Assembly: GCA_025462885.1 (NCBI GenBank)
Contig: JAOAPN010000016.1
Location: 62,001-126,000 of the forward strand
Direction of reading: 5' to 3'
DNA from: Acidobacteriaceae bacterium
Lineage (GTDB): Bacteria > Acidobacteriota > Terriglobia > Terriglobales > Acidobacteriaceae
Length of the DNA stretch: 64,000 bases
Position numbers and translations under genes: made by a program. The notes below the pieces were generated by a model. The model was not told the DNA's origin. It did no database searches and saw only the letters and a list, made by a program, of their open reading frames with translations. Below, piece by piece: positions 15,295 to 34,683 of this stretch. How positions within the stretch are numbered: position 1 is the first letter of the stretch; each line of letters starts with the position of its first letter.

Positions 15295-15298
15295 GCAT

Positions 15299-15904: not shown

Positions 15905-16091
15905 TATTCACGAGACGGAGCATGCTTCGCTTGATTGCCTCTGCAAATAGTTTTCTAAAAAAAGACTGAACAAAAACAGGGGCAATGGAATATGGAACTG
16001 TCGTGTGTCGACGCGTTGATTTCTGCGCCCGCGCGCTTCCCTCATTTCCAAAGCGGCAGCGGCACCATCAGGCTCCGAAAGGTAAAAGACT

Positions 16092-18842
16092 TTGTGCTTC
16101 ATTCGATCGACCGTTGCCTTCCTCACTTTGACGTTATCTGCATCACTTCCTGCTTTTCCGAAAAACCTTGCCCAGGCCTCAAGCGCTCCGACGAGTGAGG
16201 TGCAGGTTCAGATTAAGGATCCGTCCGGGGCTGGGCTGCAGGCGACAGGAGTGTTGGTGGGGCCTGCTTCGCAGCAGAAGCGTCCCTTCCAGACGAATGC
16301 TCTCGGGTTCTGGAACCTGTCCGGGCTGGCGCGTGGAACCTACCGTCTGGAGATAAGCCGCAGTGGGTTTACGACGCAGACCGTGAAGCTTGAAGTATCG
16401 GCCTCCGGGACGGTTTCGCGGGAGATCGTTCTTCCGCTAGAAGCTGTAGCTTCGTCGATCACGGTGGTGTCGGCGGTTCCGATTGGCAAGGCGGACCTCA
16501 GCCTGAGTGACATTCCCGTTGGAGTACAGACCCTCACCGCGAAGCAGATGGAAGACAGTGGAGCGCTTGATCTTGCAGATGCGATGAACAAGCGTCTGAA
16601 CGGCGTCTACATCAATGAGAATCAGGGAAATCCTTACCAGCCCGATATCAACTACCGCGGCTATACGGCGTCGCCGTTGCTGGGGACGCCACAGGGCTTG
16701 TCCGTTTATATGGACGGAGTTCGGCAGAATCAGCCCTTTGGTGACGTCGTCGCGTGGGACCTGATTCCGAAGGTTGCCATTGAGAGTGCGGAGTTGATGC
16801 CGGGTGCGAATCCGGTCTATGGCCTGAATACATTGGGCGGAGCGATTGCGATCCAAACGAAGAGTGGCCTGACCCACCCCGGTGCAAGTCTGCAGGTGAC
16901 CGGAGGCAGCTTTGGGCGGCGAGCGATCGAAGGCGAGATTGGCGGCTCCGCTCCGCGAGGGCTGAACTGGTATGCAGCCGGGAATCTCTATCACGAAGAC
17001 GGGTGGCGAAAGCACTCGCCCTCGGACGTGCGGCAGTCGTTTGCGAAGCTCGGATGGACGCATGGGAAGACGACGCTCGCCCTGAGCGGAGCGTATGCGA
17101 ACAACTGGCTGAACGGTAACGGCACGCAGGATTTTCGTTCGCTGCAGAGGGACTACACCAGCGTCTACACGGTTCCGGACACGACATGGAATCGCTCGCC
17201 ATCTCTCACCTTCAACGCGACGCACGATCTGACGGACAAGATATCGCTCTCCGGCAATGCGTACTTTCGCTATGTGCGGGCCGATACCACCAACGGCGAT
17301 ATTAATGAGGACTCCTTCGACCAGTCGCTCTACAACCTCAGTGCTGCTGACATTGCGGCACTGACCGCAGCAGGCTATACCGGCTTTCCGACGACGGGAA
17401 ACTCTACGACACAGCCGTTTCCCTTCTGGCGTTGTATCGCGCAAGGCCTTGAACAAAGTGAGCCTTCCGAGAAGTGCACGGGCGTTATCACGAACACAAG
17501 GACGCAGCAGAATAACTATGGACTCTCGGGGCTCGTAAGTTGGCGTACCAGCCACAACCGGCTCTCCGCGGGGGTGGGATGGGATCGCAGCAGCCTGACG
17601 TATCGCCAGGCTTCACAGTTCGGCTATCTGAGCGCCGATGGGATTTCGATTACGCCGATCAACTCCTTTCTGGATGGATCGACCAATGCAGATGACGCTC
17701 CCGTCGATACGCGCGTTCAACTACATGGCACGGTGAACACTCCGAGCATCTACGCGATGGATCTGGTTTCTCTGGGCAAATGGACAGTAACGGTGTCCGG
17801 CCGCTACAACCGCACGGCAGTTGATAACTTCGATCGTCTGCCGAAGAGTGCGGGGCGCGGCTCCTTGAATGGCAACTATGTCTTTCAACGATTCAATCCC
17901 TCGGCTGGATTCACCTACAGCCCGACAGGCTGGTTAACGACCTACTTCGATTACAGCGAGAGCAGCCGCGCTCCCACCTCCATCGAACTGGGGTGTGCAG
18001 ACCCAAACTTCCCCTGCAATCTTCCGAATGCACTGGTCAGCGATCCGCCGCTCGATCAGGTTGTAAGCCGAAGCTTTGAAGCTGGCATACGAAGTAAGCA
18101 GGAAGGAATACTGCGTTGGAGCGCGGATTGGTTCCGTGGCCAGAACAGCAACGACCTGCTCTTTATCGCTTCAAACCAGACCGGCTTCGGCTACTTCGCA
18201 AACTTCGGCAAGACGCGGAGACAGGGAGCCGAATTGAACCTGAGCGCCACCACGAAACATTTTGGAGTGGGGGGCGGATATACCTTTCTTCGAGCGACGT
18301 ATGAAAGTCCGCAGACTGTAAACGGAGGAAGCAACAGTTCCAACGACAGCAGCAAGGCCGGGTTGAAGGGCGTGGATGACGACATCACAATCACCCCGGG
18401 TAATCGCATCCCGCAGACACCGCAGCACATCCTCAAAGTATTCGCGGACTACAAGCCTTCCTCGAAGCTCACGGTCGATGTGAATGTGCTGGCGATTTCG
18501 AGTTCGTTCGCACGCGGAAACGAGAACAACCAGGACGTCCCGGATGGCACGTACTACCTGGGCAGCGGGACGTCTCCTGCGTATGGAATCGTCAACCTGG
18601 GCGGACACTATCAGCTCCATCCCAGATTTCAATTGTTCCTGCAGATCAACAACCTGTTCGATCATCACTACTTTACGGCGGCGCAGCTTGGGGCGACTCC
18701 ATATGACAACAATGGACGATTCACACCGCGACCGTTCGCGCCTGTGGACGGAGACTACCCGCTTCGGCATACAACGTTCTATGCACCCGGAGCGCCAATC
18801 GCTGTTATCGGCGGATTGCGCGTGACGCTCTGGAAGAAGTGA
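16092..18842 (+). CDS. TonB-dependent outer-membrane receptor with regulatory-like N-terminal domain
   Basis: 916 residues: signal peptide, an N-terminal carboxypeptidase-regulatory-like beta domain (about 35-115, EVQVQIKDPSGAGLQ and ALGFWNLSGLARGTYRLEI), a plug domain (about 130-260, VGVQTLTAKQMEDSGALDLADAMN, ending GGAIAIQTKSG) and a 22-stranded barrel ending in LRVTLWKK. Plug and barrel closely follow FecA/CirA-like siderophore and metal receptors rather than the very large sugar receptors of this phylum. The start appears to be TTG, with AAAGG 11 bases upstream; no in-frame ATG or GTG is available earlier. It is divergent from the ECF sigma gene, a common layout for sigma-controlled uptake. 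The ligand cannot be assigned. Confidence 0.87.
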   Translation: MCFIRSTVAFLTLTLSASLPAFPKNLAQASSAPTSEVQVQIKDPSGAGLQATGVLVGPASQQKRPFQTNALGFWNLSGLARGTYRLEISRSGFTTQTVKLEVSASGTVSREIVLPLEAVASSITVVSAVPIGKADLSLSDIPVGVQTLTAKQMEDSGALDLADAMNKRLNGVYINENQGNPYQPDINYRGYTASPLLGTPQGLSVYMDGVRQNQPFGDVVAWDLIPKVAIESAELMPGANPVYGLNTLGGAIAIQTKSGLTHPGASLQVTGGSFGRRAIEGEIGGSAPRGLNWYAAGNLYHEDGWRKHSPSDVRQSFAKLGWTHGKTTLALSGAYANNWLNGNGTQDFRSLQRDYTSVYTVPDTTWNRSPSLTFNATHDLTDKISLSGNAYFRYVRADTTNGDINEDSFDQSLYNLSAADIAALTAAGYTGFPTTGNSTTQPFPFWRCIAQGLEQSEPSEKCTGVITNTRTQQNNYGLSGLVSWRTSHNRLSAGVGWDRSSLTYRQASQFGYLSADGISITPINSFLDGSTNADDAPVDTRVQLHGTVNTPSIYAMDLVSLGKWTVTVSGRYNRTAVDNFDRLPKSAGRGSLNGNYVFQRFNPSAGFTYSPTGWLTTYFDYSESSRAPTSIELGCADPNFPCNLPNALVSDPPLDQVVSRSFEAGIRSKQEGILRWSADWFRGQNSNDLLFIASNQTGFGYFANFGKTRRQGAELNLSATTKHFGVGGGYTFLRATYESPQTVNGGSNSSNDSSKAGLKGVDDDITITPGNRIPQTPQHILKVFADYKPSSKLTVDVNVLAISSSFARGNENNQDVPDGTYYLGSGTSPAYGIVNLGGHYQLHPRFQLFLQINNLFDHHYFTAAQLGATPYDNNGRFTPRPFAPVDGDYPLRHTTFYAPGAPIAVIGGLRVTLWKK

Positions 18843-18852
18843 TGGCGGCGGT

Positions 18853-19890
18853 TCAGATCACATCCTCGTCCACTGTCTTGACGATGGTGTAAGAGGGGTC
18901 CAGCTTACCATCCTGCAGATTGAGATTCTGTGGCGCGTAGGTGATTGCATACTCAAGCCGTACAGCCACGCTGTTCGAGATCGTCGATCCCGGCTCCACG
19001 GGGCGCCAGACAGGAAGCCCGAAGAGCGGAAGCCACGACTCGTGTAACTTGTCGAGCGCGTACTTCGCCGGCGGCATCATGGACTTCGCGAGAAATGCCG
19101 GCTCGAAGGCGAGCCCCAGCGCGGCGGCCTTGGCGACCATCCAGGTGAGGGGCGCGTCGGAGAGAGTCGTAAGATCGTCGATGCCACCCGCGGCCGTGGT
19201 TCCGCCGCCGATGTCTCCGTGACAGCCGGAAAACCAGACCTGCTCGATGGTCTGTCCCGGTGCGGGAGCAGAGGTCCATTGGGTGATTGGAAATTCTCTC
19301 CTGCGTTCATCGATGGACATGCACTGGAAGGCGTTCTTCACGTTGGGATTCAATGATGTATCGAGAAATCCATACTTGTCTGCATCCACGCCTCCGAAGA
19401 TCGCTGGAATTCCGAGCGCGCCGACCGTATCCCATACGCCGATCATACGAATGCACGCTGTCTCCAGCTTGTACTTCGCGAGTTGCGCGAGCAGTTGAGC
19501 GCGGTTTGCCCGGTCCCGATACGCTGCGAAGACGCCCTCCACCAACGCATCGTCGAAGTCGCCCGCGGGAAGGCCGCAGGCGGCGATCATTCCTGCGACA
19601 CTTCGGGCTGTGTATGCGCCCCGGCTGAATCCGAAGAGAAAGACTTCGTCTCCGGGCTCGTAGACGTGACTGATCTGGCCATAGCCGCTCATGACTTTAT
19701 CGAGGATGCCTCGCCCCAGAATCCCGTCCAGTGCGCGCGTGAAGCCGGAGGCTTCCGCTCCGAGACCGTCATCGTAGAAGGCCACCTGACTGCTCGTGAG
19801 AGAGAGACCTTTATAGAGCTTGTAGACGTTCGTGTTGTTGCGGGGCAGTTGCCATGTCCCGTCGGCGGCGAAGATGATCTTTTTGGGCAT
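18853..19890 (-). CDS. DUF2235 alpha/beta hydrolase (Tle1-like fold)
   Basis: 345 residues with the DUF2235 architecture: KIIFAADGTW at the N terminus, the nucleophile elbow GFSRGA (S89 in G87-F-S-R-G91), FSGCHGDIGGG and a conserved VWDTVGALG. The domain is found in phospholipase-type T6SS effectors (Tle1) but also in stand-alone housekeeping proteins; no secretion genes are present, so an effector role is not supported. I start at the ATG at 19888-19890, which has GGAG nine bases upstream; the frame could extend 36 residues further without a signal. It is divergent from the lipoprotein gene at 20018 and probably belongs to the same functional cluster. Confidence 0.82.
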   Translation of the reverse strand: MPKKIIFAADGTWQLPRNNTNVYKLYKGLSLTSSQVAFYDDGLGAEASGFTRALDGILGRGILDKVMSGYGQISHVYEPGDEVFLFGFSRGAYTARSVAGMIAACGLPAGDFDDALVEGVFAAYRDRANRAQLLAQLAKYKLETACIRMIGVWDTVGALGIPAIFGGVDADKYGFLDTSLNPNVKNAFQCMSIDERRREFPITQWTSAPAPGQTIEQVWFSGCHGDIGGGTTAAGGIDDLTTLSDAPLTWMVAKAAALGLAFEPAFLAKSMMPPAKYALDKLHESWLPLFGLPVWRPVEPGSTISNSVAVRLEYAITYAPQNLNLQDGKLDPSYTIVKTVDEDVI

Positions 19891-19982
19891 GTCGCATGGC
19901 TCCGTGGAAGAGGCGTTGCTTCTTCCGGTGCTTCGATGCAGGACCGTGGCCTTGGTAGAGTCGATAGCCTTTGTATAAGAAG

Positions 19983-20011
19983 TTGACAGAACGTGCAACT
20001 TAGTATTTTAT
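19983..20011 (+). promoter_or_regulatory. Promoter-like element abutting a start codon
   Basis: TTGACA at 19983-19988, a 17-base spacer, then TTTTAT at 20006-20011. The ATG at 20018 lies where transcription would start, so the message could be leaderless. The -10 match is weak. Confidence 0.45.
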
Positions 20012-20017
20012 GCTCGC

Positions 20018-20962
20018 ATGCAATTAACCCATCAGTCCGCGAGGAGAGGCCTACGCCTGTCTGTGACCAGCTTTGTCGCAGGTATTCTTCTCACGCTAAG
20101 TGGTTGCTCGCTCACACCGCTGGCACGGCATTCAGCGGCGTTTTCAACCGCTACGGCGGTCGTAGTCAACGGATCCGAGAATGCCTATCGGGCTGCGAAC
20201 CGACTCTATTTTGAGGAGCAGATATCAGCCGCGGCCTTGAGTTACGACTCGCAACCGAACTGGGATCCGCACTCGATCCAGCCGTTACTCAGCGAAACAC
20301 AGCTTGAAGTGCGGACGACGTTGCTGAACTCGCTGAAGGTCTACGCACGGAACATCTCCGAGGTTGAGAACGCTCCCCGTAGATCCGAGGGCCTCGATTC
20401 GGCTGCCACTGGAGCTGGCAACAATCTGCTTGCCCTGAGTAGCAGCCTGAATGGGGAACTGGGCGACGCCAAGGGCATTACCGTGTCGCAGGAACAGGCG
20501 AATGGCCTGAGCACGGCGGTGAAAGCGCTGGGTGAATTTCTAATTGCGAAGAAAGTCCGTCATGAGTTGCCGGCGCAAATCCAGACAATGGACCCGCAGA
20601 TCGAAGCAATCTGCAGGGTGCTACTGCTGGATATTACGGCTCTACAGACGCAGACGAAGAACGATTACAGCGACCTGCTCACCCAACAGGATCTTTTTAT
20701 TCGCAGGGCGGGCGACAAGCTGAGTCCAGTGGAGCGACGTGCGGAGATACGCAAGCTGCCCCTTATCTTGCAGAAGGCCGAGGCCTCAAAGGAGTTGCTG
20801 GAGGCGCTGAAGGTGGCATTGCATCGGCTTGCACTGGCTCACCACGCCCTGGCTGCCGCAGCGCAGGGGAATAATCCCGAGGATCTACGAGCGAAGATTG
20901 GCGATCTACAGGATGCAGGTCAGACGCTTGCGAACTTCTACCAAACCCTTCCAACCAGTTAG
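20018..20962 (+). CDS. Unknown helical lipoprotein
   Basis: 314 residues not assignable to a known family by eye. A lipoprotein signal is clear: positively charged start, hydrophobic stretch, LLTLSGC with the cysteine at residue 30. The rest is strongly alpha-helical with heptad-like leucine and alanine spacing (LLNSLKVYARNI; SKELLEALKVALHRLALAHHALAAAAQG), suggesting a coiled-coil or helical-bundle periplasmic protein. It lacks enzyme motifs. The next gene begins 12 bases downstream, so the two are cotranscribed and may form a complex. The ATG is taken as start although no clear ribosome site precedes it. Confidence 0.75.
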   Translation: MQLTHQSARRGLRLSVTSFVAGILLTLSGCSLTPLARHSAAFSTATAVVVNGSENAYRAANRLYFEEQISAAALSYDSQPNWDPHSIQPLLSETQLEVRTTLLNSLKVYARNISEVENAPRRSEGLDSAATGAGNNLLALSSSLNGELGDAKGITVSQEQANGLSTAVKALGEFLIAKKVRHELPAQIQTMDPQIEAICRVLLLDITALQTQTKNDYSDLLTQQDLFIRRAGDKLSPVERRAEIRKLPLILQKAEASKELLEALKVALHRLALAHHALAAAAQGNNPEDLRAKIGDLQDAGQTLANFYQTLPTS

Positions 20963-20973
20963 AGGGAGAGACC

Positions 20974-21351
20974 ATGACGACAGCAAAGAACACGAAGCTT
21001 GCAGCGCTTCCGCCTCCAGATCCGCTGCAAGCTGCTGATCCAGAGGCCTACTATCAGAACCTCTTCGACACGCTGGGCGATGCTTACTGGGCGGCCTCGG
21101 ACCTTGCTTCCAAGGACCAGATCCAAGGAGCGCGGGAGGCCGTGCACACGATTCTGACGGCGATTACACGAGCCAAGATCGCTAAGAATACCTCGGAGCT
21201 CATCAGGCTGGGGCCGATGGTTACCAAGACGAACGTTGCTCTCAAGCAACTACAGAAGGACATCAACGGGATCGTCAAAAAGATCCAGGTGGCAGCGGAT
21301 GTCGAGAACGCCATCGCGAAGGTGTTGTCCCTCGCGGGAAAACTTATGTAG
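20974..21351 (+). CDS. Small helical protein of unknown function
   Basis: 125 residues with no signal peptide, no cysteine and no recognised motif. Predicted to be almost entirely helical (IQGAREAVHTILTAITRAKIA; LKQLQKDINGIVKKIQVAADVENAIAKVLSLAGKLM). AGGGAGAG lies just upstream of the ATG at 20974. It follows the lipoprotein gene closely and converges on the dihaem cytochrome gene ending at 21376. The similar helical character of the two plus-strand genes suggests partners, which is inference. Confidence 0.7.
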   Translation: MTTAKNTKLAALPPPDPLQAADPEAYYQNLFDTLGDAYWAASDLASKDQIQGAREAVHTILTAITRAKIAKNTSELIRLGPMVTKTNVALKQLQKDINGIVKKIQVAADVENAIAKVLSLAGKLM

Positions 21352-21375
21352 TTCACGACCTACTATCAAGGCGAT

Positions 21376-23826
21376 CTAGAAGGTCTTGATGAATTCAATG
21401 AGAGCCACCTTCTCCGCGTCACTCAACCCTGGCTCGTCTTTGGACTGAGACGTCCCGAAGTAGTGACCGCGATTGACGACGTAGTCAGGGCACTTGCTCA
21501 GCTTGACCATATCCGGGACTAAGTTGCTGAACGTCTGACGAACCTGCTCGTCCGTCGCGTCAGGCGGCAACTCGCCTAGATCATGATGAGCCCGTTTGAG
21601 AAATTCGATAATCTGGTGGTTGCGCTGGAGCACTGAAGCGGGATCGCGCTTCTCGCCGAGAAGGTCGAGATTCGAGAGAAGCATCACCGGCGTTCCTTTC
21701 GGAATGGGGCCGATCTGGATCTGTCCTTCGCCAAACAGTGCCGGGAAGAAGCGGTGTCCAAATCCCAGAAGAGGCTTGAGAGCATCAGGCAGGTAGCCCC
21801 CCGGGACGGTCAGATAGCTCCGCGCGGTGGTACGGTCGATGCGACCGTGAGCCTTGTCTCCCACGACGGTATCCACGTCGCGCTTTTCAGGCCAGAGCAT
21901 CTGCTCGATCGAACTCTGAAAGACCTGCACCCGAGCCTGCACCGACGGACTCGGATTGAATGGCCCCACCGAGTTGTTTTGCAGGAATGGAGCTGTCGAC
22001 CAGGCGCTGATGAGCGAAGGCGGACGCATATAGCCGCGCCCGCCAGCCGGCATCTGGTAAGGCACCTGCTGCCCGGAAACGACGTCGTAGATCTGGATGC
22101 TTCCAATCGACGGAAGATCTTTGTAGGTCTCCGACGAGAAGTTATCCCAGATATTTCCGCGGATCGCGTTGGTTGCAAGAGCACTGCAGGCATTAGTCCG
22201 CAGCAGAGTGATCGGGACGCGCAGGTCCGTCGATAGATAGTTCTCTTCAAGGAAGTCCGAAGCAAGCACCTTCTGCTTCATGGCCGTCTTGAAGGTATCG
22301 GTCTTGGTGTAGGCCCAGTACGCATTCCAGCAGCTCAGGTAGTCCTTGCCGTTGCAATGGCCGGGATCGGCGCTAGCCGGGAGGTCGGGAATCTTGCTGG
22401 AGTGGCAGCGGGCACAGCGCTCCGCATAGACTGTCTTTCCTTGCACCAGCTTCGCCTGGTCTTTGGTGAGGTAGGCGGCACCTCCCGGCGCATCCTGCAG
22501 CTTGTGTGGAGCAGTGCTCTTGAGGAAGAATAGCGCTGTGAGAGGTGTCTGCTGCTGCGTCACCTGCCAATAGACCGAGTTCTGGTCCGCGACACTGATC
22601 TCGATGGGAGTGACCTTCTTGCCGCCGACCAGCGGGCGGAAGTGCGTGATCCATTCTTCGCTGAAAAGTCCGATGTTGAGGTAGACACGATTCAACGCGC
22701 CGAGCGCTCCCACCGAGTCGGAACCATCCTTCAGGATGTGGGGCGGCGAAACGATATCCGGTGCTTTGAAGAATTTAGTAAGTGGGCCGTCTTTGTAGAA
22801 GTCGTTGAACTGCTTGTTATTCAATTCACCACCGGCGAGCTTTTCTGTCTCCCAACGCTGTGCCATCGCTAGTCGCCACGAAAGCCCGTACACAGCATTC
22901 ATCGAACGCGGATTATTAATGTTGTCAGTAGAGATGAGAGAGGTATCCAGCGTACCTGGGCGCGAGGTGTGAAAGAGCTGGTACGGGAAGCTCTTCTCAT
23001 CTGCCTGGTACGAGAAGATGCGGTCGATCCAGAAGTATTGCGCGCCAACATTTGAACTGAGGTCAGCCCACTCCGGATGCTCCGGGTCCGACGGTGGATG
23101 CGTTGGGTTCGGCCCTACGTGACAAAACGCGCACGCCATCCCAACGCGGTATGGACGAATCAAATTTTTGTCGTTGTAGTAGTCCGGGTCCTTGTAGAAA
23201 CGCTCCGCATCCCAGCGTTTTGCTGCGTCCTCATCGAAGTCAGGATTCGGAAAGAGCCTGAGCCCCACGATGCCGGAGGCCAGGCCATAGTAGGAGCCGA
23301 CCGGAACAGTGTGACCACGCGCACCGATCTTGACTCCGGGATAGTTCGACTCACTCTCAAAGGGATCGGCGGGGCAGTCCTTGCGCCGCTTATCGATCCA
23401 AAGTCCGAAGTGTTCGGGATCCGGGCCGGTCGCCTTATCGAAGCACGGCTCGTTGACGAGCCCCAGGTAGTTCCAGCGATTATCCCGATTCGCCTTCAGC
23501 GCCGGATGATTGGAGACCGTCTTGAGAAAGTCGAGGGTGCCGACGCTCGACTTCGTCATGAGGTCCCAGAACTTGTCGTCGCCACCCGTCCAGACCAGCC
23601 ACATATTGCGACCTTTGACCTCGTCGCTGTTGAGTTGAATACCTCCATCCATGTCGTGGAAGTAGTTCTCTCCGGCTGCGGGAAAGGAAGCTGTTGAGCG
23701 CTGAGCCCTGAGCGCCTCGTCCTTCACCACTCCCGACCTGCTGCAAGAGACGGCTGCAAACAGCAGCGTCCATGCGCCAACACATAGCACCGCGCGACGA
23801 ACGAGTCCGGTCCCTGAAGTTCTCAC
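21376..23826 (-). CDS. Large dihaem cytochrome c protein (MauG/RoxA-like)
   Basis: 816 residues with a probable lipoprotein signal (VSC, cysteine 28) and two c-haem motifs, CAFCH at 232-236 and CARCH at 471-475. Late in the chain YMRPPSLISAWSTAPFLQNNSVG (about 599-621) corresponds to the distal-haem segment of dihaem peroxidases and rubber oxygenase RoxA, which read roughly RP-L-G-W-tAP-LHNGSV; glutamine stands where histidine is usual. The spacing between haems (about 240 residues) and the length are also nearer RoxA/RoxB than CcpA. Function is probably haem-based peroxidase or oxygenase activity at the cell surface. It is divergent from the GMC oxidoreductase gene. Confidence 0.75.
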   Translation of the reverse strand: MRTSGTGLVRRAVLCVGAWTLLFAAVSCSRSGVVKDEALRAQRSTASFPAAGENYFHDMDGGIQLNSDEVKGRNMWLVWTGGDDKFWDLMTKSSVGTLDFLKTVSNHPALKANRDNRWNYLGLVNEPCFDKATGPDPEHFGLWIDKRRKDCPADPFESESNYPGVKIGARGHTVPVGSYYGLASGIVGLRLFPNPDFDEDAAKRWDAERFYKDPDYYNDKNLIRPYRVGMACAFCHVGPNPTHPPSDPEHPEWADLSSNVGAQYFWIDRIFSYQADEKSFPYQLFHTSRPGTLDTSLISTDNINNPRSMNAVYGLSWRLAMAQRWETEKLAGGELNNKQFNDFYKDGPLTKFFKAPDIVSPPHILKDGSDSVGALGALNRVYLNIGLFSEEWITHFRPLVGGKKVTPIEISVADQNSVYWQVTQQQTPLTALFFLKSTAPHKLQDAPGGAAYLTKDQAKLVQGKTVYAERCARCHSSKIPDLPASADPGHCNGKDYLSCWNAYWAYTKTDTFKTAMKQKVLASDFLEENYLSTDLRVPITLLRTNACSALATNAIRGNIWDNFSSETYKDLPSIGSIQIYDVVSGQQVPYQMPAGGRGYMRPPSLISAWSTAPFLQNNSVGPFNPSPSVQARVQVFQSSIEQMLWPEKRDVDTVVGDKAHGRIDRTTARSYLTVPGGYLPDALKPLLGFGHRFFPALFGEGQIQIGPIPKGTPVMLLSNLDLLGEKRDPASVLQRNHQIIEFLKRAHHDLGELPPDATDEQVRQTFSNLVPDMVKLSKCPDYVVNRGHYFGTSQSKDEPGLSDAEKVALIEFIKTF

Positions 23827-24215
23827 AGGCTGCTTGCTCCTGAAGTAATCTATTTTTCTAATCCAGCAACAGGTTCTATGGGGGGCCGAGAAGACGAGGA
23901 GAAGAGTCGATCAAAGAAAGAAAGCACGCGGTTCACTGGGCCCGGGAGGAAACGCGTCGGAAAATTCATTGAGATCTATTGGAGACGAACTATAGCACAG
24001 GGCCAGCACCCTTGAAACTCGAAAGTCGAATGAGCCACTGCCTTCCCCTCACCTTGCAGACCGGCACGCAATTTTCGGTGTCGCATATAATCCTCCACGA
24101 CTGCGTGCCATGGCTTGAACGTGAGGAATAGCGTGAAGCACAACGATCCTGTATCGCTCCGGACAGCCTTCCGCGCCATCCTTTCGCATCGCCGCTGCGG
24201 CTGCGGAGATCAGGC
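23827..24215. other. Divergent intergenic region of the oxidoreductase cluster
   Basis: 389 bases between the dihaem cytochrome and the GMC gene. It contains a TATAAT at 24086-24091 that could be the -10 of the GMC transcript and a possible 28-codon leader frame at 24133-24219. Nothing else was recognised. Confidence 0.5.
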
Positions 24216-24219
24216 ATGA
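24133..24219 (+). CDS. Possible 28-residue leader peptide
   Basis: A GTG-started frame with GAGGAA five bases upstream, ending in a TGA that overlaps the ATG of the GMC gene (ATGA at 24216-24219). The peptide is basic with a CGC pair near its end. The overlap would allow translational coupling, but the GMC gene has its own GGAG. Low confidence. Confidence 0.25.
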   Translation: MKHNDPVSLRTAFRAILSHRRCGCGDQA

Positions 24220-26096
24220 GCTTTGAGATTCCCGAAGCTTCGTGTGAGTACCTCGTCATAGGTTCTGGCGCTGGAGGGGGAACCCTGGCGGCGCGTCTGG
24301 CCGAGGCCGGCAAGAGCGTCATCCTGCTGGAGGCGGGGGACGACCCGAAAGCGGTCGCCGGCGCAGACCCGCTCACACCCGGTAAAGACCGCTTGCCGGA
24401 AGATTACGACGTTCCGGTGTTTCACGCGTTCGCGTCAGAAAACGATGCGATGAAGTGGGACTTCTTCGTTCGTCACTATGCCGACGAGCAGTTGCAACGC
24501 CTCGATCCGAAGTACCAGGCCAACCAGCAAGGCATCCTGTATCCGCGCGCCGCGACGCTTGGCGGATGCACTGCTCATAACGCCATGATCTTCGTCTATC
24601 CGCACGACGCGGACTGGAACCACATCCGCGACCTGACTGGAGACGAGTCCTGGTCCGCCACGCGCATGCGGAGTTTCTTTGAGCGGCTGGAAAATTGTCA
24701 TCACCGGCCACTGCATCGGTTGTTCTCGATGCTCGGGATCAATCGCACGCGCCATGGATTCAAGGGATGGTTGCACACGGAGAAGGCGATCCCGATGCTC
24801 TCCGCGAAGAACCTCGATCTCTTCCGCGTGATCGGCGAGTGTGCAGCAGAGGCGAGCTTCGATATCGGCCAAGAAAAAGATCGGCTGCGCTGGCTGGTAG
24901 AGAGCCACCTCGATCCGAACGACTGGCGCACGGTAAAAGATAACTCCGTGGGACTGCGCTACCTTCCTCTGACAACGCGTGACCATGCGCGGATCGGTTC
25001 TCGGGAGAGAGTTTTGGATGTTGCGAAGCGCCTTCCAAAGCTGCTTGAGGTGAGGCTACAGTCGCTCGCGACACGCGTTCTATTTGACGAAAATCAGAAG
25101 GCCATCGGAGTCGAGTATCTACAAGGGCAGCATCTTTACAAGGCACATCCTCAACCCGCTGAACAACCAGGCACGCTATACCGCGTCTACGCCTCGCGTG
25201 AGGTGATCTTGTGCGGGGGCGCCTTTAATACTCCGCAGCTTCTCATGCTCTCAGGGGTTGGGCCGCCAGAGACGCTCAAACAACACGGCATCCCGGTGCG
25301 CGTGGCTCTGCCTGGCGTGGGGCAAAATCTTCAGGATCGCTATGAAGTTGGGGTCGTCCACCGCATGAACTTTGACGAGTGGCCGGTCTTCGAAGGAGCG
25401 CGTTTCGAGCGCGGCGATCCGCAGTTTCAACAATGGGAGAAGCACCGCTCCGGACCCTATATGACGAATGGGGCCGTGTTATCGCTGTTTCGACGCTCTG
25501 CACCGCAACGTCCTCTGCCTGATCTCTTTTTCCTTGCCCTACTGGGGCGATTTGAAGGCTACTTTCCGGGATATTCCAAGCTCTTTGCAGAGAATCTGAA
25601 CTACCTGACCTGGGCCGTATTGAAGGCACATACCAATAACTGTGCAGGTGAAGTAACACTTCGCTCCGCCAATCCACTGGATACTCCGGCGATCAATTTT
25701 CGCTACTTCTGTGAAGGCACGCCGGACGCCGACGAAGACCTGGACTCTGTAGTCGAAGGCATCCGCTTCGCGAGACGTATGTGCTCCAATCTGCAGCGAG
25801 AGAAGATCATCTATGAAGAGACTCTCCCCGGCAAGGACTGCCAGACGCAGGAGGAGTTGCGGGAGTATGTGCGGAGTACAGCATGGGGACATCATGCCTC
25901 GTGTACCTGCGCGATCGGCCCGCGTAAATCCGGCGGCGTACTCAGCAGCGACTTCCGCGTTCACGGCACGCAGGGCTTGAGAGTCGTGGATGCTTCCGTG
26001 TTTCCGCGCATTCCCGGCTTCTTTATTGCCAGTGCCGTGTACATGGTGGGGGAGAAGGCAGCACAGGTCATTTTGGAAGAAGCCTCAGCGTCCTAA
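24216..26096 (+). CDS. GMC family FAD-dependent oxidoreductase
   Basis: 626 residues. An N-terminal FAD-binding motif (VIGSGAGGGTLAARL at 14-28, ending with an acidic residue in LLEAGD), the GMC signature regions (AATLGGCTAHNAMIF and GAFNTPQLLMLSGVGP) and a C-terminal catalytic region GHHASCTCAIGP, followed by LRVVDASVFPRIPGFF. It belongs to the choline dehydrogenase/cholesterol-oxidase superfamily and oxidises an alcohol. The protein has no signal peptide. It is the first of three plus-strand genes with the duplicated membrane protein and DyP peroxidase; hydrogen peroxide from an oxidase could feed the peroxidase. GGAG lies eight bases upstream of the ATG. Confidence 0.88.
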   Translation: MSFEIPEASCEYLVIGSGAGGGTLAARLAEAGKSVILLEAGDDPKAVAGADPLTPGKDRLPEDYDVPVFHAFASENDAMKWDFFVRHYADEQLQRLDPKYQANQQGILYPRAATLGGCTAHNAMIFVYPHDADWNHIRDLTGDESWSATRMRSFFERLENCHHRPLHRLFSMLGINRTRHGFKGWLHTEKAIPMLSAKNLDLFRVIGECAAEASFDIGQEKDRLRWLVESHLDPNDWRTVKDNSVGLRYLPLTTRDHARIGSRERVLDVAKRLPKLLEVRLQSLATRVLFDENQKAIGVEYLQGQHLYKAHPQPAEQPGTLYRVYASREVILCGGAFNTPQLLMLSGVGPPETLKQHGIPVRVALPGVGQNLQDRYEVGVVHRMNFDEWPVFEGARFERGDPQFQQWEKHRSGPYMTNGAVLSLFRRSAPQRPLPDLFFLALLGRFEGYFPGYSKLFAENLNYLTWAVLKAHTNNCAGEVTLRSANPLDTPAINFRYFCEGTPDADEDLDSVVEGIRFARRMCSNLQREKIIYEETLPGKDCQTQEELREYVRSTAWGHHASCTCAIGPRKSGGVLSSDFRVHGTQGLRVVDASVFPRIPGFFIASAVYMVGEKAAQVILEEASAS

Positions 26097-26222
26097 ATCA
26101 GCATCCCAGCTCTGCAAGGCATGCTTTCTTCTTGACATGGATTGACGAAGCAGAGATATTGAGTCGCATCTCCCTTCCCGGCCATTTCCAGATGTAGACT
26201 CCGAAAACGCAGGACGTTCGCC

Positions 26223-27521
26223 ATGACTCCCCAATACAGCTTCATGGTTGTTGCGCCAATCCTTCCGGGAAGAGAGCAGGACTTGCGCGAGCTCTTGCTC
26301 TCCATGAATCGTTCAGGTGGAGACGCAGATCCGGCGAATGGACTCTTCCCTTTCGGATCGTTCCCGCGCATCCATTTTGCGCGATTCGTAATTCTGGACG
26401 ATAGGACCTCCACCGACCTTGGGGCGTATGGGCTTCCGGTGCCTGCCTATCCAGCGGCTCTTGCCTTCCTCGGAGACTTTGACGGACCCTCTCCAACGAT
26501 CGTTCCGGAGTTCGTACGTGAGGCGTCCGACGGCCTAACGCGCATCTTTCTGCATTGCGATGCTTCTCTGAACAAAGAGCGATTGCCGACCTGGATGGAG
26601 TCGCACGCGGTGAAGCCATCCGCGACGTATATCAACCAACTGGGACGCACCGTGCGATCCGTACGCGAGGAGTCGACACTTTACGAAGCTCTTCAAAAGC
26701 ATGTGGGCGGCCAGCACGATCTCAAGCATTGGACGGCACAGGCACTCTTCCAGGACTCAAAGCGTGTCGTCACCGAGAAGATACGTGACGGAAGTCTGAC
26801 TCTTACATCGGAAGAGACGACCCCCTGGGGATGGCGGTTCGAAAACTTCATCCACCTGATAGGCGTGCCTTTCGTCCTCCTGCTGCTCTCTCCCCTGCTG
26901 CTGCTCTATGCCCCCTTCTTTCTCTTCCAGCTTTGGAGACGGGAGCGGTCCGATCCCGAGATCGCTCCGCGCATTGAACTCGATCATGCGGATGCGCTGG
27001 CCCGTATCGAGGACCACGATGTCACGAATCAGTTCAGCGCCTTCGGAAGTATCAAGCCGGGCCTCTTTCGACGCTGGACCCTTGTTTTTATCCTTTGGGT
27101 GATCCAATACACGGCTCGGCATCTCTATCACAGCGGACGTCTCGCCCGCGTCAGTACCATTCACTTTGCTCGTTGGGCCTTCCTCGATGACCGGAAGCGG
27201 CTCTTCTTCGCAAGCAACTACGACGGCAGCCTGGAAGCGTATATGGACGACTTCATCAATAAAGTAGCCTTTGGATTGAACGCCGTCTTTAGTAATGGCA
27301 TAGGGTATCCGTCGACGAAGTGGCTCATCTCCAAAGGCGCGAAGGACGAGCAGAAGTTCAAGTACTACATCCGTCGCCACCAGGTGCCGACCGAGGTCTG
27401 GTACAACGCTCATGCGGGTCTCACCGCATTTGCCATGCAACGCAATACGCGCGTACGGCAGGGACTTGAGAAGGAATCGATGACTGAAGTCGAAGCCGCT
27501 GCCTGGTTGGGACTACTTTAG
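26223..27521 (+). CDS. Membrane protein with duplicated ferredoxin-like halves, DyP-linked
   Basis: 432 residues not assigned to a named family. Two halves repeat the same pattern: IHFAR at 50-54 with LDD at 58-60 and a following FDG, and IHFAR at 313-317 with LDD at 321-323 and YDG. Between them are one strong membrane segment at about 210-238 and a weaker hydrophobic stretch at 285-298. The repeats are reminiscent of ferredoxin-like dimeric alpha/beta-barrel proteins, the fold also used by DyP peroxidases and chlorite dismutases. It lies 14 bases upstream of the DyP gene and is almost certainly cotranscribed. It may anchor or present substrate to the peroxidase; this is inference. Confidence 0.75.
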   Translation: MTPQYSFMVVAPILPGREQDLRELLLSMNRSGGDADPANGLFPFGSFPRIHFARFVILDDRTSTDLGAYGLPVPAYPAALAFLGDFDGPSPTIVPEFVREASDGLTRIFLHCDASLNKERLPTWMESHAVKPSATYINQLGRTVRSVREESTLYEALQKHVGGQHDLKHWTAQALFQDSKRVVTEKIRDGSLTLTSEETTPWGWRFENFIHLIGVPFVLLLLSPLLLLYAPFFLFQLWRRERSDPEIAPRIELDHADALARIEDHDVTNQFSAFGSIKPGLFRRWTLVFILWVIQYTARHLYHSGRLARVSTIHFARWAFLDDRKRLFFASNYDGSLEAYMDDFINKVAFGLNAVFSNGIGYPSTKWLISKGAKDEQKFKYYIRRHQVPTEVWYNAHAGLTAFAMQRNTRVRQGLEKESMTEVEAAAWLGLL

Positions 27522-27535
27522 AAGGGACATGCGCC

Positions 27536-29041
27536 ATGCCGTCAAGCGAGGTCGATTTTCGTGATGTTCAGGGGATCGTCCGATTTGGATACGGACCTCT
27601 GAAGGAGGCGTGCTTTCTCCTCCTGCGAATCCGCGATGCCGGAGCTGCGCGGCAATGGCTTGCAACCGCTCCAGTTACAAATGCAGTCAAGCTGGACAAA
27701 GCTCCGGAGACCGCATTGCAGATTGCCTTTACTGTGACCGGTCTGCGCGCCGTGGGACTTTCGGACGAACTCATTGCGGGTTTCTCGAATGAGTTTCTTT
27801 CTGGCCTGGCAGGGGATGCGAGCCGCTCGCGGCGTCTTGGCGATGTTGGACCCAATACACCCGTGGACTGGATGTGGGGTGGCAACGAGGCCGGCACACC
27901 GCACCTCGTGTTGATGCTTTATAGCGTGCCCGGCGGTCTCGACGCATGGCGAAACCAAATCAAGGGAATGCGCTGGGAGGAAGCCTTCGACGAAGGTGTA
28001 TGTCTCCCGACCTCCGACATGCACGGCCTTGAACCGTTTGGATTCAAGGATGGAATCAGCCAACCTACCCTGGATTGGGAACGCGCCCGGGATGCATCTG
28101 GCGACACGATGGAATACACCAACAGGGTCGCCCTGGGAGAGTTTCTGCTTGGATATCCAAACGAGTATGGACGGTACACGGATCGCCCGCTTCTATCTGA
28201 TTCGAGCAAAATTCCTGCCGCAGCATCGGGACTTCTACCCGCAGAAGATCAGCCATCCTCGCTGGATTTTGGACGAAACGGTTCGTATCTCATCCTGCGT
28301 CATCTTGAGCAGGACGTCCGCGCATTCTGGCAATTTGCGGATCGCGCCACGCAAGGAAGCGCCAACGAGCGAGAGAGGCTTGCGAGCGCGATGGTCGGTC
28401 GACTCAGGACGGGCGAGCCTATCGTTGCACTCGAAGAGAAGGCCATCGATGGAATTGATCCTCGCGATGCGGCGCTGAACAACTTCAACTACGCTTGCGA
28501 TGAGATGGGATTATCCTGCCCACTCGGGTCGCATCTTCGTAGAGCCAACCCACGCACCGCCGATATGCCGGCTGGAACTGCAGGAAGTATCAAGAAGCTC
28601 TTGCGTGCGCTTGGCTTTCCCCGCGAGGATCTGCGTCAGGACACGATCAGTTCGACGCGTTTCCATCGCTTGTTACGGCGTGGTCGAGAGTACGGTGAGC
28701 CAATTACTCCAAGCGAGGCGCTCTCCAATGCTCCTCAGGGAGAACCCGTTCGCGGGATCTATTTCGCCTGCCTCAACGCCAACATAGCGCGCCAGTTCGA
28801 GTTCGTACAAAGTGCATGGATGATGAATGCAAACTTCGACGGCCTACCGGAGGAGACCGATCCACTGCTGGGCCCTCGTTGCCCTCTCTTCGGAGGAGAA
28901 GCCACAGACTCCTTCTCCATGCCGCAGAGCAGCGGGTTGCGTCGGAAGACCCTGAACATGCCGCGATTCGTCACGGTTCGGGGAGGCGCGTATTTTTTCC
29001 TGCCCAGCCTCTCCGCCCTTCGCTACATCGCTCAACAGTAA
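27536..29041 (+). CDS. DyP-type haem peroxidase
   Basis: 501 residues. The family fingerprint GFKDG is at 169-173 (catalytic aspartate D172) within EPFGFKDGISQP, and the proximal haem region CPLGSHLRRANPR follows. Length and the extended N terminus point to the larger DyP subclasses. DyP enzymes use hydrogen peroxide to oxidise dyes, lignin-like phenols or other bulky substrates. No Tat or Sec signal is present, and no encapsulin gene is nearby, so the protein is probably cytoplasmic or bound to its membrane neighbour at 26223. Last gene of the plus-strand trio. Confidence 0.9.
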   Translation: MPSSEVDFRDVQGIVRFGYGPLKEACFLLLRIRDAGAARQWLATAPVTNAVKLDKAPETALQIAFTVTGLRAVGLSDELIAGFSNEFLSGLAGDASRSRRLGDVGPNTPVDWMWGGNEAGTPHLVLMLYSVPGGLDAWRNQIKGMRWEEAFDEGVCLPTSDMHGLEPFGFKDGISQPTLDWERARDASGDTMEYTNRVALGEFLLGYPNEYGRYTDRPLLSDSSKIPAAASGLLPAEDQPSSLDFGRNGSYLILRHLEQDVRAFWQFADRATQGSANERERLASAMVGRLRTGEPIVALEEKAIDGIDPRDAALNNFNYACDEMGLSCPLGSHLRRANPRTADMPAGTAGSIKKLLRALGFPREDLRQDTISSTRFHRLLRRGREYGEPITPSEALSNAPQGEPVRGIYFACLNANIARQFEFVQSAWMMNANFDGLPEETDPLLGPRCPLFGGEATDSFSMPQSSGLRRKTLNMPRFVTVRGGAYFFLPSLSALRYIAQQ

Positions 29042-30631: not shown

Positions 30632-31369
30632 TCAGAGCATTCCACAGAGAAGAACCACTCCCGCCGCTAAGCTCGCGCCCACAAGCGGTCCGAGCACCGG
30701 AATCCACGCATAGCTCCAGTCCGACGATCCTTTGGCAGGGATGGGAAGCAGAGAGTACGCGATGCGGGGGCCAAGGTCGCGTGCTGGATTGATGGCATAT
30801 CCCGTCGTGCCTCCCAAAGACAGTCCGATGGCCCATACCAGCGAACCAACCAGGACCGGTCCAAGACCCGGAGCTAATCCTGCGGGCGACACCCGCTTCG
30901 AGAACAACGCTGTCGCGACCAACACCAAGATAAAGCTGCCTGCAACCTCGCTGAAGAGGTTCCAGACAGGCTGCCGCACCGCCGGAGAGGTCGCAAAACA
31001 TGCAAACTTGGTCTCGGCATCTTCGGTCAGAGCCCAGTGTGGCTTGTAGTGCATCCACACCACAATCGCAGCCAGGAAAGCCCCGAGAAACTGTGCGGGA
31101 ATGTAGGTCGCGAGACGCGAAGCATGGCCCGTCATCAGGACAGATGCGAGCGTAACGGCCGGGTTCAGGTGTCCATCCGGATCGCCAAGCGCGGTGCTGA
31201 CCGCCACCCCGGCAAACACCGCAAGGCCCCAGCCCGCAGTGATCGAAATCCATCCGGCGTTCTGAGCCTTCGAGCGATTGAGCAGCGCACCCGCCACGAC
31301 ACCGTTCCCCAGCACGATCAGAACGAAGGTTCCTACAAACTCACCCAGCACGGGAGACGAGACGATCAT
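30632..31369 (-). CDS. glpF: Glycerol uptake facilitator (aquaglyceroporin)
   Basis: 245 residues with the MIP fold: six membrane segments and two NPA boxes, HLNPAVTLA in the first half and INPARDLGPR in the second. The aspartate after the second NPAR is characteristic of glycerol rather than water channels. Passive glycerol entry across the inner membrane. It is last in the glpK-glpD-glpF operon, 18 bases downstream of glpD. Confidence 0.93.
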   Translation of the reverse strand: MIVSSPVLGEFVGTFVLIVLGNGVVAGALLNRSKAQNAGWISITAGWGLAVFAGVAVSTALGDPDGHLNPAVTLASVLMTGHASRLATYIPAQFLGAFLAAIVVWMHYKPHWALTEDAETKFACFATSPAVRQPVWNLFSEVAGSFILVLVATALFSKRVSPAGLAPGLGPVLVGSLVWAIGLSLGGTTGYAINPARDLGPRIAYSLLPIPAKGSSDWSYAWIPVLGPLVGASLAAGVVLLCGML

Positions 31370-31387
31370 GATTTGCTAAGACTCCTC

Positions 31388-34452: not shown

Positions 34453-34683
34453 CTTGCATTCCTCGACTAAACCCTTTTGAAATCCATTACATTCCCCAGC
34501 CTGATGAATGAACCTCACCACTTTATGCTGCCCGGTACGATCCGTCCAGACATCGTTCAAGCATTGCTAATCAAAGCAGCAGCGAAGTCTGCGGCAACGC
34601 GAATGACATCACATCTATGCCTGCATCCGTAGACTCCACGGTTAGTCCAATGACGATACACATGCCACATTTCAGGCAAAGAA

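What the first reader, a model, noticed from the sequence alone, without database searches (positions are those of the whole stretch)
18853..29041. Candidate undescribed oxidative system around a DyP peroxidase
A 10-kb block groups a DUF2235 hydrolase, an unknown helical lipoprotein, a helical partner, a RoxA/MauG-like dihaem lipoprotein, a GMC oxidoreductase, a duplicated membrane protein and a DyP peroxidase. An oxidase making peroxide next to a peroxidase, plus hydrolase and surface haem protein, suggests stepwise attack on a bulky hydrophobic or polymeric compound. No known operon of this composition comes to mind.
Basis: inference. Interest (0 to 1): 0.7.

Follow-up and report, generated by a model that had tools for sequence, protein, structure and literature searches.

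The report
Widespread bacterial heme-enzyme gene cassette
Four of the seven genes in this block belong to a gene cassette of heme enzymes that recurs in many bacterial phyla, whose two other usual partners sit elsewhere in this genome, and which may make and process oxidised fatty acids; its function has not been tested.

Summary
The seven genes exist, but the block is not one unit. Four belong to a conserved cassette: a dihaem lipoprotein (ROX), a GMC flavoprotein, a duplicated membrane protein (MEM) and a DyP peroxidase. The DUF2235 gene, lipoprotein and helical partner are bystanders (1, 0 and 0 of 80 loci). Two usual partners lie on another contig of this genome: a catalase-superfamily protein (CAT) and a 145-aa protein (SML). 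A same-genus genome has all six in 9.4 kb. Of the 80 loci closest by MEM, 44 are at least 20.5 kb: DyP, SML and CAT are in 44 of 44, and each has ROX (30), an animal-haem-peroxidase-family oxygenase gene (7) or both (7). More distant genomes can have MEM-DyP without CAT and SML. MEM is fused to DyP, or to P450 and DyP, in four plasmid records read; DyP is fused to CAT in one MAG. Best explanation: fatty-acid oxygenation, with hydroperoxides passed to MEM-DyP, CAT and SML (oxylipin-type pathway). The cassette is well supported; the substrate is inferred. The H2O2-making oxidase idea is weakened: a second GMC catalytic residue is Phe. Ten searches of a partial paper library found no description.

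The parts
21376..23826 (-). ROX: probably exported dihaem lipoprotein (lipobox-like ..FAAVSC by eye, CAFCH at 232-236, CARCH at 471-475), proposed initiating oxygenase
   Evidence: ORF; both CxxCH invariant in 27 aligned members; homologue in 63 of 80 loci; NF040606 dihaem cytochrome c peroxidase 41 bits, below the 150 cut-off
23827..24215 (.). 389-bp divergent intergenic region between ROX and GMC, possible shared promoter region
   Evidence: orientation and sequence; no sigma-70-like match inside it
24216..26096 (+). GMC flavoprotein, proposed to oxidise the oxygenated product; atypical active site (H560 kept, Phe603 in place of Asn/His)
   Evidence: PF00732 and PF05199 over cut-off; motif counts; alignments to choline oxidase and others; 48 of 80 loci
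26223..27521 (+). MEM: protein of two ferredoxin-like (ABM-type) units with HFAR...[GS]xxDG in each, and a hydrophobic helix 202-243 between them
   Evidence: AlphaFold2 pLDDT 89.7, pTM 0.90; Foldseek top 9lmn E 1.5e-4; duplication and motif counts
27536..29041 (+). DyP-type peroxidase, 14 bp after MEM; the two reading frames overlap by 4 bases in 34 of 80 relatives
   Evidence: D172, H333, R381 and R382 invariant in 28 sequences; next to MEM on the same strand in 80 of 80 loci
18853..19998 (-). DUF2235 / Tle1-like lipase-family gene: neighbour, possible but unproven substrate-releasing lipase; true start probably internal (MPKKIIF, by eye)
   Evidence: PF09994 E 5e-67; only 1 of 80 loci has a homologue, L066

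Best explanation
ROX, GMC, MEM and DyP are four of six genes of a cross-phylum cassette; CAT and SML are the other two and in this genome sit on another contig. Most likely it is a bacterial oxylipin-type pathway. (1) A lipase (patatin in some relatives, perhaps DUF2235 here) releases unsaturated fatty acids. (2) An initiating haem oxygenase, ROX here, in some other genomes an alpha-dioxygenase-like protein, adds O2 and gives a fatty-acid hydroperoxide. (3) MEM, DyP, CAT and SML take up the hydroperoxide at the membrane: MEM anchors DyP and presents the lipid, DyP uses the hydroperoxide as oxidant, and CAT, a catalase-superfamily protein without the distal His, isomerises or cleaves it. (4) GMC, where present, oxidises the product. 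Shown: the cassette, the fusions, the presence of ROX or the other oxygenase gene in all long loci, the predicted fold of MEM, conserved DyP catalytic residues. Inferred: the substrate, the order of steps, and the roles of MEM, SML and CAT.
For: 80 loci closest by MEM: DyP 80, SML 77, CAT 70, ROX 63, GMC 48, patatin-like 16. In the 44 of at least 20.5 kb: DyP, SML and CAT 44 each; ROX only 30, other oxygenase only 7, both 7, neither 0; Fisher p 9e-5, not corrected for relatedness. Same genus: MEM, CAT and SML occur in the same 3 of 11 genomes; G036 has all six genes in 9.4 kb. Fusions: MEM-DyP (L109), P450-MEM-DyP (L108, L110, L111), DyP-CAT (L010). The other oxygenase: the L044 member is closest to plant fatty-acid alpha-dioxygenases, E 6e-114, against 1e-30 for the best peroxidase; YRxH, the motif given for the dioxygenase tyrosyl radical in PMC4496055 as YRWH, is in 17 of 18. 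CAT profile: best PDB hits are coral allene oxide synthase-lipoxygenase, E 0.009 and 0.078. Fatty-acid oxygenases of the RoxA/dihaem peroxidase kind exist in bacteria (PMC4496055, abstract and passages read).
Against: No substrate was tested. CAT and SML are not obligatory for MEM-DyP: of 7 MEM-bearing genomes among 199, the four with divergent MEM (G152, G063, G051, G075) have no CAT or SML match, and no CAT, SML, ROX, GMC or COX homologue is seen within the 16.5-18.6 kb held around the four plasmid fusions. The 80 loci are the closest by MEM (46-61% identity). All 7 loci with the other oxygenase but no ROX fall in one MEM clade, so the exchange may be few events. Only one of its members was searched against PDB; of the 14 long-locus hits L001 is a fragment and L056 a 22% relative. 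CAT-AOS similarity is weak. The window ROX lacks the MauG-motif His (APFLQNN), and is below family cut-offs; its model has no significant fold match. CAT does not co-vary with ROX (r 0.07). Neighbours show little lipid enrichment. GMC's active site is atypical.
Confidence: 0.5

Rival explanations
1. A lipid-peroxide defence module: membrane-anchored DyP and CAT destroy lipid hydroperoxides and H2O2; ROX and GMC are electron-transfer or scavenging partners rather than makers of product.
For: DyP catalytic residues kept; CAT belongs to the catalase superfamily; hosts include ammonia and methane oxidisers (titles), which may carry a high oxidative load (inference).
Against: CAT lacks the distal His of catalases in the alignment; each of the 44 long loci carries ROX or the other oxygenase gene, and the member of the latter that was searched is alpha-dioxygenase-like; patchy presence, 3 of 11 same-genus genomes.
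Confidence: 0.28
2. ROX and GMC are a separate dehydrogenase-cytochrome pair that travels with MEM-DyP, which does another oxidation such as secondary-metabolite tailoring.
For: ROX-GMC co-vary strongly (r 0.89, 44 rows) as do MEM-DyP (r 0.91, 75 rows), while CAT-ROX r is 0.07; GMC is never without ROX in the 44 long loci; MEM-DyP and P450-MEM-DyP fusions without the other genes nearby.
Against: GMC shows no signal peptide by eye and N-terminal hydropathy while ROX looks exported; the 7 ROX-less long loci all have the other oxygenase gene, which points to ROX as an oxygenase.
Confidence: 0.14
3. One reading: H2O2-producing GMC feeds DyP, and hydrolase plus surface haem protein attack lignin, rubber, sterol or another bulky polymer outside the cell.
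For: The RoxA-like_Cyt-c profile matches 17 of 27 ROX members at E up to 1, best E 3e-4; a DyP oxidises lignin model compounds (PMC8230527, abstract start in a listing).
Against: DUF2235, LP and HEL are not conserved; DyP and GMC lack signal peptides by eye; GMC Phe603; alpha-dioxygenase-like gene where ROX is absent.
Confidence: 0.07
4. Chance neighbours without functional link.
For: Only the three bystander genes.
Against: 44 of 44 long loci share DyP, SML and CAT with MEM across phyla, plus gene fusions.
Confidence: 0.01

Closest known systems
Pseudomonas aeruginosa oleate-diol synthase pair PA2077/PA2078 (FadCcp; PMC4496055, abstract and passages read)
   Same: Dihaem cytochrome-c-peroxidase-type fatty-acid oxygenases; haem sites 235-245 residues apart, 239 in ROX
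   Different: The passages read describe two dihaem proteins and name none of the other cassette partners; they have PYFHNGSVP where the window ROX has APFLQNNSVG
Rubber oxygenases RoxA/RoxB
   Same: Two CxxCH haems; RoxA-like profile faintly detectable
   Different: Window ROX is below the PF21419 cut-off and has no RoxA/B/C match at E 0.001; haem spacing 239 against 199 in RoxA (PMC4496055); rubber not implicated
Coral allene oxide synthase-lipoxygenase fusion (1u5u, 3dy5)
   Same: Catalase-superfamily hydroperoxide enzyme coupled to a fatty-acid oxygenase
   Different: CAT similarity weak (E 0.009); partner is ROX or an alpha-dioxygenase-like protein, not lipoxygenase
Fungal DOX-CYP linoleate diol / allene oxide synthases (PMC13049297, abstract start in a listing only)
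   Same: Fatty-acid dioxygenase coupled to a hydroperoxide-processing haem enzyme, also as fusions
   Different: Here P450 is fused to MEM-DyP on alphaproteobacterial plasmids; DyP is not mentioned in the abstract start that I saw
Plant fatty-acid alpha-dioxygenase (4kvj, 4hhr)
   Same: Closest solved relatives of the oxygenase of relatives, L044 member, E 6e-114
   Different: No such gene is in the block; the L044 member has TPR-like matches at its N-terminus
DyP-type peroxidases
   Same: GxxDG Asp, and the His and Arg residues recalled as proximal and distal, are kept; PDB relatives at E 3e-39 and below 1e-20
   Different: Divergent (TIGR01413 below cut-off); lies beside MEM in all 80 loci, but these were fetched by MEM, and DyPs of this kind without MEM were not searched for
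Tandem ABM/SchA-like proteins (9lmn)
   Same: Two ferredoxin-like domains as in MEM
   Different: MEM has a hydrophobic helix between them and a DyP partner; TM-score only 0.38-0.44

Membership tests
DyP-type peroxidase (window 27536-29041) | Homology to DyP structures and family model | tested here: met
   8re3 'Peroxidase, putative' E 3e-39, DyP2 E 1e-26; TIGR01413 E 1e-21, 77 bits, below the 100.5 cut-off; PF04261 not found in the genome
DyP-type peroxidase (window 27536-29041) | Asp of GxxDG, proximal His, distal Arg (residue roles recalled) | tested here: met
   D172, H333, R381, R382 invariant in 28 of 28
DyP-type peroxidase (window 27536-29041) | Peroxidase activity | not testable with these tools
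   needs protein
Rubber oxygenase RoxA/RoxB | Two covalent haem sites CxxCH | tested here: met
   C232/C235/H236 and C471/C474/H475 invariant in 27
Rubber oxygenase RoxA/RoxB | RoxA-like family models over cut-off | tested here: not met
   Window protein: PF21419 12 bits against 26.7, no RoxA/B/C match at E 0.001; of 27 members RoxA, RoxB, RoxC match 1, 2 and 2, best E 6e-5 to 2e-4
Rubber oxygenase RoxA/RoxB | Hydrophobic dioxygen pocket, Phe301/Phe317 (PMC6797691, passages read) | not tested
   no reliable residue alignment to RoxA
Rubber oxygenase RoxA/RoxB | Fold match to RoxA | tested here: inconclusive
   AF2 pLDDT 81.5; Foldseek: 19 matches, none significant; 9 are MauG at E 4.4-9.7, RoxA not among them, unrelated proteins rank above
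Fatty-acid dihaem peroxidase (FadCcp) | CxxCH spacing 235-245 | tested here: met
   239 (values from PMC4496055)
Fatty-acid dihaem peroxidase (FadCcp) | MauG motif PYFHNGSVP | tested here: not met
   APFLQNNSVG in the window; some distant members keep a His there, e.g. L012, L013
Fatty-acid dihaem peroxidase (FadCcp) | Fatty-acid oxygenation | not testable with these tools
   needs assay
GMC oxidoreductase | GMC_N and GMC_C domains, FAD motif | tested here: met
   GxGxxG in 44 of 44 ungapped of 48
GMC oxidoreductase | Catalytic His plus second His/Asn (roles recalled) | tested here: not met
   H560 48 of 48, but Phe603 in 47 of 47 ungapped where choline oxidase and a chloramphenicol-inactivating enzyme have Asn and patulin synthase and aryl-alcohol oxidase have His
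Catalase superfamily (CAT, L089:9696-10946) | Homology to catalases | tested here: met
   blastp E 6e-35 to 2e-46 to three paralogues (L038, L047, L053), all over the PF00199 cut-off; direct Pfam scan of three CAT members finds nothing
Catalase superfamily (CAT, L089:9696-10946) | Proximal R-x3-Y haem ligand motif (recalled) | tested here: met
   R388 and Y392 invariant in 33 of 33, aligned with R-x3-Y of the genome's own catalase
Catalase superfamily (CAT, L089:9696-10946) | Distal His of true catalases (recalled) | tested here: not met
   aligned position is Asn118 in CAT; alignment could be off by a residue
Allene oxide synthase (coral type) | Sequence match to 1u5u | tested here: inconclusive
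   profile E 0.009, one 60-residue stretch
Fatty-acid alpha-dioxygenase (gene of relatives, not in window) | Closest solved relative and radical-Tyr motif | tested here: met
   L044 member only: 4kvj E 6e-114; YRxH in 17 of 18 hits, the 18th being the fragment L001

The most novel reading that the evidence does not exclude
A previously unrecognised, widely shared bacterial counterpart of the eukaryotic cyclooxygenase/allene-oxide cascades. Interchangeable haem oxygenases (dihaem ROX or an alpha-dioxygenase-like protein) feed fatty-acid hydroperoxides to a membrane enzyme complex of new families, MEM-DyP with CAT and SML, that turns them into signalling or surface-active oxylipins. On alphaproteobacterial plasmids the MEM-DyP core is welded to a P450 in one polypeptide.
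Probability: 0.35. Interest if true: 0.85.

Novelty: new variant of a known kind. Interest (0 to 1): 0.7.

Why it matters
DyP peroxidases are widespread and their natural substrates are an open question (my own knowledge). A DyP subfamily with a dedicated membrane partner, regular company of a catalase-like protein, and a haem oxygenase gene in all 44 long loci makes that question directly testable. Four of the six families (MEM, SML, CAT, ROX) have no accepted Pfam match in the members scanned. The cassette occurs in cultured organisms such as Nitrosomonas europaea (L052) and Paraburkholderia (L024, L042), so bench tests are within reach. If the substrate is as inferred, it extends enzymatic oxylipin chemistry to many bacterial phyla.

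Tried and rejected
Rejected: a seven-gene operon (LP 0, HEL 0, DUF2235 1 of 80 loci). LP and HEL are a separate pair, found together elsewhere in G036. Rejected: anti-phage defence; PADLOC gave no match for eight of nine proteins and a 13.6-bit match for GMC. Rejected: chance.

Led nowhere: Pfam on MEM, SML and CAT. SML profile against PDB: best E 0.0088 to 9r1o, then GFP-like proteins, not meaningful. Profile comparison of CAT with the genome's own catalase, probability 32%. Foldseek of ROX, nothing significant. Promoter and terminator scans below the shuffled means, 2 against 3.8 and 6 against 7.7. Pfam tally of 115 neighbours: 82 families, first 25 shown, among them Abhydrolase_1 4, TIR_2 4, Lipase_3 2, Tle1-like 1, aldehyde dehydrogenase 1, so little lipid signal. 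Ten paper searches with words of my choice gave no description of the cassette; the library lacks most subscription papers and I opened only PMC4496055 and PMC6797691 (abstract and passages; passages).

Selection told: the search for related loci kept the best 80 of 172 loci by MEM similarity. The 20.5-kb length cut (44 of 80) was chosen after seeing that short pieces lacked genes; counts for all 80 stand beside it. Six loci with none of ROX, GMC and the other oxygenase, and one with GMC only, are held stretches of 4.3-12.8 kb. ROX hits include 15 of 63 at 20-39% identity. Of the 18 hits to the other oxygenase, L001 is a 256-residue end piece and L056 and L069 are 22% relatives. Greedy ORF calling gave antisense artefacts (cluster c5), and the joint cluster 'D' mixed DyP with CAT. 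For one search I took 115 of the 156 ORFs within 1.5 kb of the core (356 within 5 kb), dropped the known catalase paralogues and many ORFs that looked antisense, and cut long proteins to 320 residues; patatins and dioxygenases had been set aside as core beforehand. In one search the L010 fusion was cut to its first 510 residues for DyP.

Full report
Names used. ROX = window 21376-23826 (-); GMC = 24216-26096 (+); MEM = 26223-27521 (+); DyP = 27536-29041 (+); DUF2235 = 18853-19998 (-); LP = 20018-20962 (+); HEL = 20974-21351 (+). CAT and SML are two genes outside the window. COX = an animal-haem-peroxidase-family gene of relatives; PAT = patatin-like gene of relatives.

Observation. Pfam and NCBIfam give DUF2235 (PF09994 Tle1-like), GMC (both domains) and DyP (TIGR01413, below cut-off); ROX shows two CxxCH sites but no accepted family; LP, HEL and MEM have none. 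The MEM duplication is real (score 68, 0 of 1000 shuffles as high). The strands show at least three units: DUF2235 (-), LP-HEL (+), and ROX (-) divergent from GMC-MEM-DyP (+).

Co-occurrence. MEM, which has no known family, was used to fetch loci: 172 found in genome contigs, the best 80 kept (46-61% identity), from Acidobacteriota, Verrucomicrobiota, Pseudomonadota (Nitrosomonas, Variovorax, Paraburkholderia, methanotrophs and others), Nitrospirota, Thermodesulfobacteriota, Actinomycetota, Gemmatimonadota, Planctomycetota and Myxococcota. By tblastn, DyP follows MEM on the same strand in 80 of 80, gap -19 to 159 bp, overlapping by 4 bases in 34. De novo clustering of ORFs showed two further conserved genes that the block lacks: SML (about 145 aa) and CAT (about 400 aa). 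Counts in all 80: DyP 80, SML 77, CAT 70, ROX 63, GMC 48, COX 18, PAT 16, a Nitrospira-type cytochrome 7, DUF2235 1, LP 0, HEL 0. In the 44 loci of at least 20.5 kb: DyP 44, SML 44, CAT 44, ROX 37, GMC 29, COX 14, PAT 13, DUF2235 1, LP 0, HEL 0.

The module is split in this genome. CAT and SML lie together at G000:C6:437258-438945, on a different contig from the window. G036, of the same genus, has ROX, DyP, MEM, GMC, SML and CAT side by side in 9.4 kb (L105:5622-14989). In a draw of 199 genomes of the phylum, MEM is in 7, CAT in 5, SML in 5; among the 11 same-genus genomes all three are in exactly G000, G036 and G195. The seven MEM loci of that draw all have DyP beside MEM. In a draw of 100 genomes of the family MEM is in 10; of the 8 beyond G000 and G036, 7 show MEM and DyP side by side by tblastn and the eighth (L122) shows DyP, its MEM match being the marginal E 8e-4. 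Two of these eight (G255, G228) seem to be the records of L004 and L002. LP is in 3 of 100, in G036 with HEL but on another contig than the cassette.

Limits of the cassette. It is not closed. The four phylum genomes with divergent MEM (G152, G063, G051, G075) have no CAT or SML match at E 0.001; G054 and G125 have CAT-like genes without MEM; G171 has SML next to GMC without MEM. MEM-DyP is therefore the innermost pair, and CAT, SML and an oxygenase are regular company among its closer relatives.

Two sub-modules. Pairwise-distance correlations: MEM-DyP r 0.91 (75 rows), ROX-GMC 0.89 (44), SML-ROX 0.75 (58), MEM-CAT 0.63 (70), CAT-ROX 0.07 (50). In the 44 long loci GMC occurs only with ROX (29 of 29), and each locus has ROX only (30), COX only (7) or both (7). 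Fisher p for ROX against COX is 9e-5 in the 44 and 2.3e-4 in all 80; neither is corrected for relatedness, and the seven COX-only loci (L038, L044, L047, L053, L054, L066, L074) fall in one MEM clade, two of them from Nitrosomonas marina. I read this as an exchangeable initiating oxygenase in front of MEM-DyP, CAT and SML, on few independent events.

What the proteins are. COX: the L044 member is closest to plant fatty-acid alpha-dioxygenases, E 6e-114, against 1e-30 for lactoperoxidase; the other members were not searched against PDB and most are 27-33% identical to it; YRxH is in 17 of 18. ROX: two invariant haem sites 239 residues apart and an invariant C-terminal GHxFG; all 27 aligned members match NF040606 at E 0.001 or better, the window one below its cut-off; RoxA-like_Cyt-c is faint in 17 of 27 (E up to 1); its AF2 model (pLDDT 81.5) gives no significant match, 9 of 19 being MauG at E 4.4-9.7. 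P. aeruginosa PA2077/PA2078 show that dihaem proteins can be fatty-acid dioxygenase and diol synthase (PMC4496055; abstract and passages read). CAT: no Pfam match in three members, but homology at E 6e-35 to 2e-46 to three paralogues next to COX that pass PF00199 (a fourth, L066, is below); R388-x3-Y392 invariant, distal His not kept; best PDB profile hits are coral allene oxide synthase-lipoxygenase, E 0.009 and 0.078. MEM: AF2 pLDDT 89.7, pTM 0.90, two ferredoxin-like units and a long hydrophobic helix 202-243; Foldseek top hit is a tandem ABM/SchA-like protein, E 1.5e-4. Each repeat has an invariant His and a [GS]xxDG-type turn (H51, D87; H314, D334, each 51 of 51), reminiscent of the DyP GXXDG signature (named in the abstract start of PMC8230527); a lead only. 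GMC: Phe603 replaces the second catalytic residue.

Fusions. In plasmid records MEM matches only partly (45 records, none covering 80% of the query). Four were read: Rhizobium L109 (974 aa) is MEM-DyP; Sulfitobacter L108, Novosphingobium pNL2 L110 and Pararhizobium L111 (1423-1620 aa) are P450-MEM-DyP, the P450 over Pfam cut-off in L108 and L111 and just below in L110. None has a CAT, SML, ROX, GMC or COX homologue in the 16.5-18.6 kb held. The P450s carry G-F-x-P-T where I expect the I-helix acid-alcohol pair (motif recalled), which would fit a hydroperoxide-using P450; the PDB matches of the one P450 searched (L111) are ordinary bacterial P450s. One MAG fuses DyP and CAT (L010, 926 aa, no stop).

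Mechanism and confidence. That the cassette is a functional unit I hold at about 0.97. That its substrates are fatty acids and their hydroperoxides, about 0.5. On checking I lowered this from 0.55 and the novel case from 0.4 to 0.35, because CAT and SML are missing from divergent MEM genomes, the ROX/COX exchange sits in one clade, and only one COX member was searched; the defence and separate-pair rivals were raised by 0.03 and 0.02. The reading rests on the alpha-dioxygenase-like gene where ROX is absent, the CAT-AOS hint, the FadCcp precedent and recurrent patatins (16 of 80). Against it stand the weak neighbour enrichment, the weak CAT and ROX matches and the absence of any assay. The H2O2-from-GMC model is disfavoured but not excluded.

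Spread. The MEM tree mixes phyla (10 changes for nine groups where 8 is the least; one Actinomycetota row among Alphaproteobacteria; Gemmatimonadota, Planctomycetota and a betaproteobacterium among Verrucomicrobiota and Acidobacteriota), which suggests some transfer, but many rows are MAG contigs that may be misbinned.

Noticed in passing
20018-21351: LP (lipoprotein) and HEL look like a conserved two-gene unit without known family; in G036 the pair lies on another contig (L113), and G171 has an LP homologue (L114) without a HEL match in the stretch held.
   Followed up: partly
L101 (G171:C8, about 108283): A same-family genome without a MEM match has GMC directly next to SML, so GMC-SML can exist apart from MEM-DyP.
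   Followed up: no
L108, L110, L111: Large P450-MEM-DyP fusion proteins of 1423-1620 aa on alphaproteobacterial plasmids.
   Followed up: partly
L038:8332-9459, L047:8476-9516, L053:8462-9496, L066:8537-9499: A second catalase-family gene sits beside the alpha-dioxygenase-like gene in these ROX-less cassettes.
   Followed up: partly
L014:3525-5465: A haem-c-like protein lies between SML and MEM in five loci (L013, L014, L017, L022, L028); homologues lie elsewhere in L040 and L056.
   Followed up: no
30632-34560: By eye, a glycerol uptake and catabolism set (aquaporin, GlpD-like, GlpK-like) follows the block; not family-searched.
   Followed up: no
14482-18842: A sigma-70-family factor (ECF-like), a probable anti-sigma factor (by eye) and a TonB-dependent receptor with a carboxypeptidase-like domain precede the block.
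   Followed up: no
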